DNA of 64,000 nucleotides from Gallionellaceae bacterium (GTDB taxonomy: Bacteria; Pseudomonadota; Gammaproteobacteria; Burkholderiales; Gallionellaceae), in NCBI GenBank assembly GCA_027448945.1, contig DAIDMQ010000028.1:62001-126000 (forward strand). Direction: 5' to 3'. The notes under the pieces are model-generated. The model was not told the origin of the DNA. It saw only the letters and a list, made by a program, of their open reading frames with translations, and searched no databases. Position 1 is the stretch's first letter, and every line of letters starts with the position of its first letter. Made by a program: the position numbers and the translations under genes. Shown in pieces: positions 29,127-33,614 of this stretch.

Positions 29127-29179
29127 AGACTGGATTATGAAGAAGTCTGCCGTGTTGGCAATCGAAATTCATGTTGTGA

Positions 29180-29185
29180 TAGAAT
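29180..29185 (+). promoter_or_regulatory. Probable -10 box of the tmRNA gene
   Basis: TAGAAT at 29180-29185; a TTGGCA at about 29155 is a possible -35 but the spacing (19) is long. Supports transcription starting near 29190, just before the acceptor piece. Confidence 0.4.
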
Positions 29186-29189
29186 CCAC

Positions 29190-29515
29190 AGCATTGTTGT
29201 GATCGGGACTTGTCCCGTGAAAACTCCGATTCAATAAGGGCTTGTTGGACGGCGGTTCAATTCCGCCCATCTCCACCATAAGTGCGTTGAAATATTCAGA
29301 GTGCTTATGCTGGGGATGACATGGCTTCGACAGTGAGCAGATAGGTTTTGGGGCGACACGTCAGGCGATCGACGTAAATGAAGCAAGCATGTAAATGCAA
29401 ACGATGAAAACTACGCTATCGCGGCCTAAAAAACCGTAAGCCGGGGCTGTTGAGCCTTGTCATACAACACAACTAGATGAGCCTCGGATGATAATGATTC
29501 CGAGGCTCATTGATT
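29190..29515 (+). ncRNA. ssrA: Circularly permuted (two-piece) tmRNA
   Basis: The tRNA-like 3' half comes first: T-arm GGCGG-TTCAATT-CCGCC at 29252-29268, acceptor strand CATCTCC at 29269-29275 and ACCA at 29276-29279. After about 32 intervening bases the 5' half begins at 29312 with GGGGATGACATGGCTTCGAC, whose first seven bases pair with CATCTCC (one G-U). The tag frame is GCA at 29397 to TAA at 29427-29429 and encodes ANDENYAIAA. Processing should remove the intervening loop, giving separate acceptor and coding RNAs. It rescues stalled ribosomes with SmpB and tags products for ClpXP. The exact 5' end and coding-piece 3' end are estimates. Two-piece tmRNA is known in alphaproteobacteria, some cyanobacteria and some betaproteobacteria. 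Confidence 0.93.
29477..29514. terminator. Terminator after tmRNA, bidirectional with gph
   Basis: 12-base arms ATGAGCCTCGGA (29477-29488) and TCCGAGGCTCAT (29499-29510), then TGATTTT. Serves the tmRNA on the plus strand and lies just past the gph stop on the minus strand. Confidence 0.85.
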
Positions 29516-29538: not shown

Positions 29539-30219
29539 TTAATCGAGATAGTTAAGCAATTCCATCGGCTGATTAATACTGCCGTATGCTTGCCAGTTTT
29601 CCACCGAGACATCGTCACTGACGTAGCCATAATTAGCGATGATGCCGCGCATCACAACCGCATTTGCGGCTTGTATGTCACGCCTGTCATCCCCTATATA
29701 CAAACACTGGGCTGGTGCGAGTGCGATGAGCTCACATGCTTTAAGCATGGGATCGGGATGCGGCTTGGCATAGGCGCACGTATCTCCGCTGACGAGGCAG
29801 GCTACACGCTCTGCATAACCTAATCCCTGCATCAAGGGCACAGTGAAACGATGTGGCTTGTTGGTGACGATGCCCCAGACGATGCCGCGCTGCTCCAATG
29901 TACTGATGAGCTCGGGCATACCTTCGAACAAGCGAGTATTTGCGCAAATGTGGGCCGTGTAATGGTCTAGGAATATATCGCGTAAAGCTTCGAACTCCGG
30001 ATGCTCGGGCGTGATATTCATTCCTGTCTTGAGCAGACCAGCCGAGCCATGCGAGGCTTGTGGACGCAGCAACTCCAAGGGGAGGGGAGGCAGTGAGCGC
30101 GTGGCACGTACATGATTAAGTGCCGCAGCCAAATCGGGTGCTGTATCAGCGAAGGTACCATCCAGATCGAATAGCACACCCTTAACGATAGGGCAGCCCA
30201 CACTCAATCCTTGCGACAC
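29539..30219 (-). CDS. gph: Phosphoglycolate phosphatase (HAD hydrolase)
   Basis: 226 residues from a GTG start overlapping the ubiG end by 16 bases. HAD motifs: [17 protein letters not shown] (nucleophile and acid Asp), [10 protein letters not shown] (motif II/III region) and [17 protein letters not shown] (motif IV). The F in GTFADT replaces the usual L/V of GTLVDS-type motifs. Gph clears 2-phosphoglycolate from DNA repair and oxygenation reactions. Pairing with ubiG is common in betaproteobacteria. Confidence 0.9.
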
Positions 30220-30899
30220 GCGATCATGTAGTTCACGTCTGTGTCTTTGCCCAAACTGTATACCTTGCTGATTGGGTTGTAGCTCATGCCGATCAGGTCG
30301 ACAACGTTCAGCTTGGCATTGCGACTAGCCTGCGCCAACTCGGATGGCTTGAGGAACTTGGCGTAGTCATGCGTGCCACGCGGCAACATATTGAGTACGT
30401 ATTCCGCACCTATGATGGCGAGTAAATAGGATTTGGGATTACGGTTGAGTGTAGAGAAGAACACCCAGCCACCCGGCTTGACCAAGTCAGCACAGGCTTG
30501 GATGACGCTAGCCGGATTCGGTACGTGCTCCAGCATCTCCAGACAGGTAACCACGTCATACTGTTCAGCTTGCTCAGTCGCCAGTGTTTCCACAGCCACT
30601 TTGCGGTATTCAACCTTCTGATTGCTTTCTAGCAGGTGCAACTTCGCGACCTGTAATGCCTTGTCTGCCAGATCTATGCCGGTCACATCTGCGCCCAACT
30701 TAGCCATGCCTTCCGACAAGATACCGCCACCGCAGCCCACATCGACTACTTTTTTACCCGTCAAACTAACATGACGGTCAATATAGCCCACACGCAATGG
30801 ATTGATGTCGTGTAAGGGCTTGAATTCACTATGCGGATCCCACCACTTATGGGCTAATTGTGAGAATTTTTCGATTTCGACAGGATCGACGTTGGACAT
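30204..30899 (-). CDS. ubiG: Ubiquinone biosynthesis O-methyltransferase
   Basis: 231 residues from ATG 30899 ([20 protein letters not shown]). SAM motif [19 protein letters not shown] near 47-65, [13 protein letters not shown], and [20 protein letters not shown], all typical UbiG. Catalyses both O-methylations in ubiquinone synthesis. A longer frame reaches 30959 but the added residues do not match the family. Divergent from gyrA with about 150 bases between. Confidence 0.95.
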
Positions 30900-31049
30900 G
30901 GCGTGTGTAGGTAAATTAAGCAAGGTCGCGACTTTAACAAACCTTGGCACAAGCGCCAAATAGTCCTATATATGTAGGGGTAGTTCGGGGGGGGTGGGCT
31001 GTGGTAAACTCACCCGCTGTTTTTAGCCATAATAATTACACCGGATACC

Positions 31050-33614
31050 ATGGATCAATTCGCTAAAGAAACACTCCCCGTCAGTCTGGAAGAAGAGATG
31101 CGCAAGTCCTATCTGGACTATGCAATGAGCGTCATCATCGGCCGCGCTTTGCCCGATGTGCGCGACGGCTTAAAACCCGTACACAGGCGCGTATTGTTCG
31201 CGATGCACGAGTTGTCCAACGATTGGAACCGCGCTTACAAGAAGTCTGCGCGTATCGTCGGCGACGTGATCGGTAAATATCACCCCCACGGTGACACTGC
31301 TGTATACGACACCATCGTTCGTATGGCTCAGCCATTCTCACTGCGTTACACACTGGTGGATGGTCAAGGTAACTTTGGTTCTGTGGATGGTGATAACGCA
31401 GCGGCGATGCGTTATACCGAAATCCGCATGTCGCGCATCGCGCACGAATTGCTGGCTGATTTGGATAAAGAGACCGTGGACTTCGGGCCTAACTACGACG
31501 GCTCTGAACACGAGCCACTAGTGTTCCCAACTCGCTTCCCGAATCTGTTGGTGAACGGTTCATCCGGTATTGCCGTGGGTATGGCGACCAACATTCCGCC
31601 GCACAATCTGAACGAAGTAATCGACGCGTGTCTGGCATTGTTGGCGAATCCGGGATTGAGCATAGATGAATTGATCGAATATGTACCCGCACCAGATTTC
31701 CCGACTGCAGGTTTCATCTACGGTCTATCGGGCGTAAAAGAGGGATATCGCACCGGTCGTGGTCGTGTGGTGATGCGTGGCCGTACCCATTTCGAAGATA
31801 TTGGCAAAGAACGTGAAGCCATCATTATCGATGAGTTGCCCTATCAGGTGAACAAGGCGAATTTGCTGATTAAAATTGGCGAGTTGGTTCGCGAAAAGCG
31901 CATCGAAGGTATTTCTGAAATCCGCGATGAATCGGACAAATCCGGTATGCGCGCGGTCATCGAGTTGAAGCGCGGCGAGAATGCCGACGTGATCCTCAAC
32001 AAGTTGTACAAAGACACCCAGTTGCAGGACAGCTTCGGCATCAACATGGTCGCCATCATCGATGGCCAGCCCAAGCTGCTCAACCTCAAACAAGTCATAG
32101 ACGCATTCCTGCGCCATCGCCGCGAAGTTGTGACACGCCGTACCATCTTTGAATTGCGCAAGGCCCGTGAGCGTGGCCATGTGCTTGAAGGCTTGGCAGT
32201 CGCTTTATCCAACGTGGACGAGATCATCGCCCTGATTAAAGCGGCTCCATCCCCAGCTGATGCAAAACGTAGCCTGATGTCCCGGGGCTGGCGCTCATCC
32301 TTGGTCGAAGACCTACTCAGCCGCGTCAGCGATGCATCACGTCCTGATGGTTTGTTGCCAGAATTTGGCCTGAATGGCGCAGGCAATAGCCGTGGCTATC
32401 ATTTGTCAGATGCGCAAGCACAAGCAATCTTGGAGCTACGTCTGCAACGTTTGACAGGCTTGGAACAAGATAAAATCGTCGGCGAATACCGCGAAGTGAT
32501 GGACAAGATCACCGATTTGCTCGACATATTGGCCAAGCCAGCACGTGTGACTCAGATCATCTCCGATGAATTATCGGCAGTGAAAAGCCAGTTTGGCGAC
32601 AAGCGTCGCAGTGAGATCATTACTCATACTCATGATATGAGCATGGAAGACCTGATCGCGCCTGAAGACGTGGTGGTGACACTGTCCCACAGCGGTTACA
32701 TGAAGGCACAGCCTTTAGCCGAGTACCGTGCGCAGAAGCGCGGCGGACGCGGTAAGCAGGCGACTGCAACCAAAGATGACGACTTCATCGACAATCTTTT
32801 CATCGCCAACACTCACAACTACATCCTGTGTTTCTCTAACATGGGGCGTGTGTATTGGCTCAAAGTTTATGAGTTGCCACAAGGCAGTCGTGCATCGCGC
32901 GGTCGTCCTATCGTCAACCTGTTGCAATTGGAAGCTGGCGAGAAGATCAATGCGATCTTGCCTGTGGTCGAATTCTCAGAAGACAAGTTTGTGTTTTTCG
33001 CCACCGCCAACGGAACAGTGAAGAAAACACCCCTGGTCGATTTCTCACGTCCTATGAAGCGCGGCATCATCGCCATCAATTTGGACGAAGGCGATTTCCT
33101 GATCGGCGTGGCACTGACCGATGGTAAGCATGACGTGATGCTGTTCTCTAATGGTGGTAAGGCAGTGCGCTTCGATGAAGAGGATGTTCGTGCGACAGGC
33201 CGTGCCTCACGCGGTGTACGTGGTATGAAGTTGGCTGAGAAGCATCAAGTCATCTCATTATTGGTTGCGGAAGATGAAGAACAGAGTGTATTGACCGCGA
33301 CCGAGAACGGTTACGGCAAGCGTAGTCCTATCGTCGAGTACACCCGTCATGGCCGTGGCACTCAAGGCATGATTGCGATTCAGACTTCTGAACGTAACGG
33401 CAAAGTGGTCGCTGCGACATTGGTTAAACCGGAAGACGAAATCATGCTGATTGGCTCTAGCGGAGTATTGATACGCACCCGCGTCAGTGAAATCCGTGAG
33501 ATGGGCAGAACAACTCAGGGCGTGACCCTGATGAACGTGGAGAAGGGTGACAAATTGGTCAGCCTGAGCCGTATCGCCGATCCAGAAGAGGAATCCGAGC
33601 AAGAACAGGATTGA
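31050..33614 (+). CDS. gyrA: DNA gyrase subunit A
   Basis: 854 residues. Breakage-reunion domain with catalytic Y122 ([12 protein letters not shown]) and the quinolone-region [11 protein letters not shown], where residue 83 is Thr instead of the Ser of E. coli and D87 is kept; the C-terminal half has the six beta-pinwheel blades, with the GyrA box QKRGGRGKQ near 561. The acidic tail ([11 protein letters not shown]) is usual. Introduces negative supercoils with GyrB. Confidence 0.98.

What the first reader, a model, noticed from the sequence alone, without database searches (positions are those of the whole stretch)
29190..29515. Circularly permuted two-piece tmRNA with an ANDENYAIAA tag
The tRNA-like 3' half with ACCA precedes the 5' half, the 7-bp acceptor stem can be rebuilt from the two, and the tag ends in IAA instead of the near-universal LAA. 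Permuted tmRNA is rare outside alphaproteobacteria and the L-to-I change touches the ClpX recognition end.
Basis: partly seen in the sequence, partly recalled or inferred. Interest (0 to 1): 0.75.

Follow-up and report, generated by a model that had tools for sequence, protein, structure and literature searches.

The report
Two-piece tmRNA replacing one-piece tmRNA
This bacterium of the iron-oxidizer family Gallionellaceae rescues stalled ribosomes with a two-piece tmRNA of an already known kind; what is interesting is that many of its relatives carry the ordinary one-piece gene at the same chromosomal spot, so one form appears to have displaced the other.

Summary
Window 29160-29509 (+) is a circularly permuted, two-piece tmRNA gene (Rfam beta_tmRNA, 146 bits; ARAGORN tag ANDENYAIAA). 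The seven-pair acceptor stem, split between the two RNA pieces, is conserved; one relative keeps it through three double changes. It is the only ssrA found in the genome, which also has one SmpB and one SspB.

As first framed it is ordinary. Permuted tmRNA is an established betaproteobacterial form (11,946 of 97,179 curated tmRNAs). Tags ending AIAA or AMAA were found in 102 of 120 loci of a capped scan, and this exact tag occurs in four one-piece tmRNAs.

The more interesting point lies outside the finding. Among 158 Gallionellaceae genomes, 14 carry the permuted gene and 112 pass the standard model's cut-off (five by partial matches). In the window's genus the permuted gene sits, inverted, where relatives keep the standard gene. 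Other genomes hold both, or the permuted gene plus a standard fragment. The permuted gene looks like a self-contained cassette of about 350 bp that occurs at unrelated sites. I read this as repeated displacement of one-piece by two-piece tmRNA; an ancestral pair with losses remains possible, and donor and vehicle are unresolved.

The parts
29180..29185 (+). Probable -10 box TAGAAT (TG one base upstream of it)
   Evidence: TANAAT at this place in 13 of 13 Gallionellaceae permuted genes aligned, while the flanks upstream differ. The consensus scan found no + strand promoter.
29192..29278 (+). 3' (acceptor) piece of the tmRNA: leader hairpin, T-arm 29251-29267, 3' acceptor strand CATCTCC 29268-29274, discriminator and encoded CCA 29275-29278
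   Evidence: Rfam RF01850 and RF04321 alignments; letters checked. The 5' end is approximate, inferred from where conservation begins.
29279..29311 (+). Intervening sequence (33 nt) expected to be removed; folds as a hairpin on top of the acceptor stem
   Evidence: Position between ACCA and GGGGATG; fold; 30-36 nt in 13 Gallionellaceae genes.
29312..29509 (+). 5' (coding) piece: 5' acceptor strand GGGGATG 29312-29318, TTCGAC motif, mRNA-like domain, 3' hairpin 29478-29509
   Evidence: Rfam RF01850; letters checked.
29397..29429 (+). Tag reading frame GCA...TAA = ANDENYAIAA, resume codon GCA
   Evidence: ARAGORN; letters checked.
29539..30219 (-). gph-like phosphatase gene, convergent with the tmRNA; anchor of the ssrA locus
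   Evidence: ORF; a homologue lies beside the standard ssrA in 17 of the 23 same-genus standard loci fetched with flanks. The gene name is recalled.
30204..30959 (-). ubiG-like methyltransferase gene, part of the conserved locus
   Evidence: ORF; synteny. Name recalled.
31050..33614 (+). gyrA, part of the conserved locus; used for the host tree
   Evidence: ORF; GyrA tree. Name recalled.

Best explanation
The locus is a working, single-copy, two-piece tmRNA gene of the betaproteobacterial permuted kind. One transcript starts just after the -10 box. Cutting out the 33-nt intervening sequence (inferred: RNase P at 29312 and 3'-end processing at the encoded CCA, 29278) leaves an acceptor piece and a coding piece. 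These re-form the alanine-type acceptor stem (G3.U70), are charged with alanine, bind SmpB, and tag stalled chains with ANDENYAIAA for ClpXP. In this genome it stands in place of the one-piece ssrA. In Gallionellaceae a compact permuted ssrA cassette has been gained at several sites, coexisted with the one-piece gene, and in several lineages outlived it. Shown here: the gene, its stem, its being the only ssrA found, the locus and the intermediates. Inferred: processing, function, and the direction of the history.
For: Identity. Sole ssrA found in a 99.98% complete genome; one SmpB, one SspB. Distribution: the permuted models pass their cut-offs in the same 14 of 158 family genomes (RF01850; RF04321, where of 14 control genomes only Caulobacter rings); standard RF00023 passes in 112 of 158, five of them partial matches (G042, G128, G079, G151, G010). 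Same locus: the permuted gene lies next to gph, or to the gene beside it in G062, in all 6 permuted-bearing genomes of the window's genus (in G032 split by a contig break); the standard gene lies next to gph in 17 of 23 loci examined, of 51 same-genus genomes with a standard match. Standard and gph are co-directional in those 17; the permuted gene is convergent in the 6. Intermediates: standard plus permuted in G127, G155 and G146 (G146's standard lacks 2 bases at a contig start), with G151's standard cut by a contig end and G119's split over two contigs; standard fragment plus permuted in G010 (nt 1-156 left), G140 (nt 1-89) and G149 (nt 294-345). Cassette: between unrelated contexts DNA similarity usually runs from about -12 to +330-355 of the gene; six genomes of genus g14 carry it at five places.
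Against: No transcript data: cleavage, charging and tagging are inferred. The relatives that I could name are MAGs, so an intact standard gene could lie in an assembly gap; several relatives have contigs that break inside ssrA. G031 keeps a 33-nt standard 3' end on a small contig. In 6 of 23 same-genus standard loci no gph was found beside the gene. The pattern could also be an old standard/permuted pair with many losses: permuted and standard genes differ by similar amounts between some genera. The donor is unresolved.
Confidence: 0.8

Rival explanations
1. Ancestral pair (rival to the history only, not to the identity of the gene): the Gallionellaceae ancestor already held both standard and permuted ssrA, and lineages lost one or the other. 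No transfer within the family is needed.
For: Gallionellaceae permuted genes form one clade (100, 96). Permuted identity between genera g12 and g14 (0.948-0.960) is like that of the standard gene (0.930-0.957). A permuted gene at the same locus is also seen in some Rhodocyclaceae (L155 with the same convergent layout).
Against: Close relatives in g14 carry the cassette at sites with no shared flank beyond about 125 bp. Only 4 of 15 genera have it. G062's permuted gene is 0.941-0.969 identical to those of other genera but 0.889-0.920 to its own genus; the maximum of 80 standard g1-g14 pairs is 0.932. Against that, a standard g1-g10 pair reaches 0.965 and the core tree puts G062 with its genus.
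Confidence: 0.35
2. Misbinning: the permuted genes are contamination from other Betaproteobacteria in MAGs.
For: The relatives that I could name are MAGs; PMC11915505 warns of misbinned tmRNAs (section 12 part 1).
Against: The window's gene lies about 1.5 kb from gyrA inside a 126-kb contig, and its GyrA is 93-95% identical to those of three other permuted-bearing members of the genus. Twelve further genomes carry copies 88-91% identical to the window's, six of them (G031, G062, G068, G072, G010, G127) on contigs that also hold family gph or ubiG genes. The neighbours in G140, G146, G149 and G155 were not checked for family origin.
Confidence: 0.03
3. The permuted gene is a decayed or regulatory copy, not a working tmRNA.
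For: No expression data.
Against: All 7 acceptor pairs are kept in 51 of 51 parsed genes (of 55), with three double changes in G068; the tag frame is intact in all 13 Gallionellaceae genes called by ARAGORN (G032's is split by a contig break and was not called); it is the only ssrA found in this genome.
Confidence: 0.04

Closest known systems
Betaproteobacterial two-piece tmRNA, Rfam RF01850 (Rhodocyclaceae-type: Dechloromonas, Azonexus, Accumulibacter; names from record titles)
   Same: Gene order, split acceptor stem with G3.U70, short intervening sequence, tags such as ANDERFAIAA and ANDERFAMAA, and in some members the same ubiG-gph neighbourhood.
   Different: Gallionellaceae genes form their own clade, 0.63 identical on average to the Rhodocyclaceae-type genes over a 193-column core. 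They encode CCA, as 6 of 38 other parsed genes do, and they occur patchily beside or in place of a standard gene.
Permuted ssrA on phage contigs (IMG/VR) and on Cupriavidus plasmids
   Same: Same permuted layout; a phage contig (L282) and a Cupriavidus plasmid gene (L362) are the closest single matches to G127's gene outside the family (0.71).
   Different: Of the genes used in the tree nearly all tags end in LAA; identity to the family averages 0.62 (phage) and 0.70 (one plasmid gene); their branching relative to Rhodocyclaceae-type genes is unresolved.
Standard one-piece tmRNA, Rfam RF00023, of other Gallionellaceae
   Same: Often the same locus, and the same expected job.
   Different: Not permuted; about 369 nt; tags seen are ANDE[KTNR]Y[AS]LAA; co-directional with gph where both were seen; an island-type integrase follows it in 14 of 54 genomes examined.

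Membership tests
beta_tmRNA (RF01850) | Score above the curated cut-off over the whole model | tested here: met
   146.3 bits against 84, model 1-331
tmRNA_permuted (RF04321) | Permuted tRNA-like domain above the curated cut-off | tested here: met
   138.1 bits against 47
Two-piece tmRNA | 7-bp acceptor stem formed between the two pieces, G3.U70 for alanine charging | tested here: met
   7/7 pairs, invariant G.U in 51 of 51 parsed genes (of 55), compensatory changes in G068
Two-piece tmRNA | Tag frame with resume codon and stop, ending in hydrophobic-Ala-Ala | tested here: met
   29397-29429 ANDENYAIAA
Two-piece tmRNA | Transcript cut into two mature RNAs | not testable with these tools
   Needs RACE or RNA-seq ends
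Two-piece tmRNA | SmpB partner in the genome | tested here: met
   One PF01668 hit, 188.5 bits
Standard tmRNA (RF00023) | Score above the cut-off | tested here: not met
   Best own-genome score 35.1 bits against 47, and that hit is this same gene

The most novel reading that the evidence does not exclude
A small mobile permuted ssrA cassette, carried at times by recombinase-bearing islands, phages or plasmids, repeatedly invades genomes and displaces the one-piece ssrA. Permutation may be favoured because the gene no longer ends in the 3' sequence that islands integrate into, so the rescue gene stops being an integration target. Two-piece tmRNA would then be an integration-proof allele, which would explain why so odd an arrangement keeps spreading. 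Support is weak. An integrase homologue lies within 600 bp downstream of 14 of 54 standard genes and 0 of 13 permuted ones in the family (Fisher p = 0.055), and the integrase queries were themselves taken from standard loci, which biases the count. Serine recombinase genes lie about 0.5-1 kb upstream of the permuted gene in G010 and G119. I lowered this from 0.12 to 0.10 on rechecking for those reasons.
Probability: 0.1. Interest if true: 0.8.

Novelty: new member of a known kind. Interest (0 to 1): 0.45.

Why it matters
The gene itself adds a well-supported member to a known class. The family around it matters more: relatives show standard only, both, standard fragment plus permuted, and permuted only. 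That makes a question usually argued from distant lineages directly testable: how can a one-piece rescue RNA be replaced by a two-piece one, and why? The listings that I saw from six searches of the held papers (titles and abstract starts, and not all hits were listed) showed no report of this in Gallionellaceae. Sharkady and Williams 2004 was not held, and I did not look for Mao et al. 2009, so priority is not claimed.

Tried and rejected
The IAA end as a marker of unusual proteolysis was rejected: it is common in both gene forms. Close descent from the sampled Rhodocyclaceae-type genes is not supported, but neither is a phage origin: the well-supported splits of the core tree only separate the Gallionellaceae genes and the Rhodocyclaceae-type genes from the rest, and the phage/plasmid group itself is unsupported. 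My first permuted-gene tree included unalignable flanks and had absurd branch lengths; I use it only for the monophyly of the Gallionellaceae genes. An independent acquisition by G062 looked likely from identities, but the core tree joins it to its genus and a standard g1-g10 pair is as similar; left open. A viral scan with a family-specific pattern found nothing. The phage-collection match covers only 34 bases and is ignored. Missing standard ssrA in some relatives was partly an artefact: 8 candidates were scored per genome, and several assemblies break inside ssrA. The acceptor-pair script failed and was redone, where 4 of 55 genes could not be parsed and were left out. One search counts genomes once and replaces the Gallionellaceae numbers; for other taxa one search gave an integrase after 2 of 41 standard and 0 of 31 permuted genes. 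The sigma-70 scan did not find the -10 box; I rely on conservation. In the core tree only genes with an ANDE tag were used and 5 identical rows were dropped (69 to 64).

Full report
WHAT IS THERE. ARAGORN and Rfam agree on a circularly permuted tmRNA gene on the + strand. Reading 5' to 3': a conserved TANAAT box (29180-29185); a leader hairpin; the T-arm (29251-29267); the 3' acceptor strand and an encoded CCA (29268-29278); a 33-nt intervening sequence; the 5' acceptor strand (29312-29318); the mRNA-like domain with the tag frame (29397-29429); and a strong 3' hairpin (29478-29509). The precursor folds much better than shuffles (z = -5.9), with the intervening sequence as a hairpin on the acceptor stem.

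IS THE TWO-PIECE STEM REAL? I parsed the two acceptor strands in 51 of 55 permuted genes (13 Gallionellaceae, 38 others, mainly Rhodocyclaceae-type; 4 did not parse). All 51 keep seven of seven pairs and the G.U third pair. One relative (G068) has GGGCCAG/CTGGTCC instead of GGGGATG/CATCTCC: three pairs changed on both sides and still pair. Cleavage, charging and tagging are inferred from the known system; they were not tested.

WHOSE GENOME? The window is bases 62001-126000 of a 126,192-bp contig of a 2.45-Mb, 42-contig, 99.98% complete genome. So the family is Gallionellaceae. Genus g1 is probably Gallionella; that is inferred, as no g1 record was named.

IS IT THE ONLY ssrA? RF00023 has 14 matches in the own genome, none over its cut-off. 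The top two are this gene, six others were opened and are tRNAs, and six were not opened. A relative's standard ssrA has no DNA match at E <= 0.001. RF01850 has one hit. There is one SmpB and one SspB.

THE TAG. ARAGORN confirms a tag ending AIAA or AMAA in 102 of them (62 standard, 40 permuted). Rhodocyclaceae-type two-piece tmRNAs carry FAIAA; Accumulibacter genes carry FAIAA or FAMAA. The exact tag ANDENYAIAA occurs in four standard tmRNAs and in no held paper. The ClpXP structural paper says that mutating the antepenultimate leucine raises KM modestly and that Ala-Ala dominates (PMC7652416, passages).

DISTRIBUTION. In 158 Gallionellaceae genomes, RF01850 and RF04321 each pass their cut-off in 14, the same 14; they lie in 4 of 15 genera. 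RF00023 passes in 112, five of these by partial matches. Some misses are artefacts, since 8 candidates were scored per genome and several contigs break inside ssrA. In an even sample of 399 genomes of the order, an exact pattern hit 11: 8 in one other family (f21), 1 in f10, 2 in this family.

LOCUS AND DISPLACEMENT. Of 51 same-genus genomes with a standard match, I fetched 23 with flanks. In 17 of the 23 the standard gene sits beside gph (gyrA-ubiG-gph-ssrA order) and is co-directional with it; in 6 no gph was found. The same neighbourhood is seen in some other Betaproteobacteria of both gene forms (L097 and L187 standard, L155 permuted), though not in most of the other permuted loci examined. 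In all six permuted-bearing genomes of the window's genus the permuted gene lies at this place and converges on gph or the gene next to it; in G032 a contig break splits it. G062 differs in insertion point from G068: beyond a cyclase-domain gene rather than before it. Elsewhere in the family, G127 and G151 have the permuted gene about 280 bp downstream of the standard one (G151's standard is cut by the contig end). G155 and G146 have both genes on different contigs. G119 has a standard gene split over two contigs, its 3' half about 2 kb from the permuted gene. G010, G140 and G149 show only fragments of the standard gene. That is a graded series consistent with displacement.

CASSETTE. Between genomes with different neighbours, DNA similarity usually starts near -12 and ends near +330-355 of the gene. 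Closer pairs share more (G146/G155 from -125; G149/G155 to +378; G010/G119 from -884 to +404). In six genus-g14 genomes it lies at five places. In G010 and G119 serine recombinase genes (Pfam Resolvase and Recombinase) lie about 0.5-1 kb upstream, with one small ORF between. A P4-type tyrosine integrase homologue lies within 600 bp downstream of 14 of 54 standard genes but of 0 of 13 permuted genes (p = 0.055, not significant, and the queries came from standard loci). Outside the family the same search gave 2 of 41 and 0 of 31.

RELATIVES. A permuted-gene pattern matches 83 stretches of viral contigs; ARAGORN calls a tmRNA in 74 of the 80 held. Four of these contigs were examined. L282, L296 and L345 carry phage genes such as a PHROG exonuclease, PhoH-like and single-strand binding proteins, the exonuclease being adjacent to the tmRNA in L296 and L345 and within 1 kb in L282; L312 has single-strand binding and DNA-binding proteins. 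I call them T4-like from memory. Four Cupriavidus plasmids match at 67-73% over 58-67% of the gene, with no gene listed there in PLSDB's incomplete table. I opened three; ARAGORN finds a permuted tmRNA with a plausible tag in two (L362, L363). The core tree supports Gallionellaceae genes as one clade (96) and Rhodocyclaceae-type genes with two viral contigs as another (94), with the other phage and plasmid genes unresolved. Identities are nearly tied: for G127's gene 0.71 to a phage contig and to a plasmid gene, 0.69 to the best Rhodocyclaceae-type; for the window's gene 0.70, 0.68 and 0.68. By eye the mRNA-like domain looks Rhodocyclaceae-like, while the encoded CCA and spacer look phage/plasmid-like. 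I do not name a donor.

VERDICT. The finding is real, and correct as a two-piece tmRNA. Its stated reasons for interest (rarity, IAA) do not hold. The family-level replacement pattern is the part worth following.

Noticed in passing
L121, L137, L163, L153, L090, L109 (permuted tmRNA genes of Accumulibacter and other Rhodocyclaceae-type genomes): The intervening sequence between the encoded CCA and the 5' acceptor strand is only 4 nt (24-49 nt in the other Rhodocyclaceae-type genes parsed). It is unclear whether so short a spacer can be cut at both sides, or whether the RNA stays in one permuted piece.
   Followed up: partly
L361, L362, L363 (Cupriavidus plasmids NZ_CP016951.1, NZ_CP080769.1, NZ_CP017753.1): Stretches like permuted ssrA on plasmids, not listed in the gene table; ARAGORN gives a plausible tag in L362 and L363, not in L361 (typed conjugative). 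The L362 copy has acceptor strands GGGCCTG/CAGGTCC, resembling the unusual stem of G068.
   Followed up: partly
L282, L296, L345 (IMG/VR contigs): Phage-borne permuted tmRNA genes lie next to (L296, L345) or within 1 kb of (L282) a PHROG_298 exonuclease gene.
   Followed up: partly
L211:9600-9900 (G127): A second copy of the last 15 bases of standard ssrA, about 200 bp past the gene and just before the permuted gene, looks like an attachment-site scar of a lost island.
   Followed up: partly
L276:6-38 (G031 contig C118): A small contig begins with the 3' end of a standard ssrA (33-base match) plus a terminator-like sequence, in a genome whose ssrA locus holds the permuted gene; a fossil or a contig break.
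   Followed up: partly
L117 (PBMB01000002.1, labelled Chloroflexi): A permuted tmRNA with tag ANDESYAMAA in a MAG labelled Chloroflexi; sequence unlike the beta type, possibly misbinned.
   Followed up: no
G041, G051, G006, G119, G120 ssrA loci: Assemblies break inside the standard ssrA (contig ends at nt 86-163) in five genomes, hinting at strain-level variation or integrations within ssrA.
   Followed up: no
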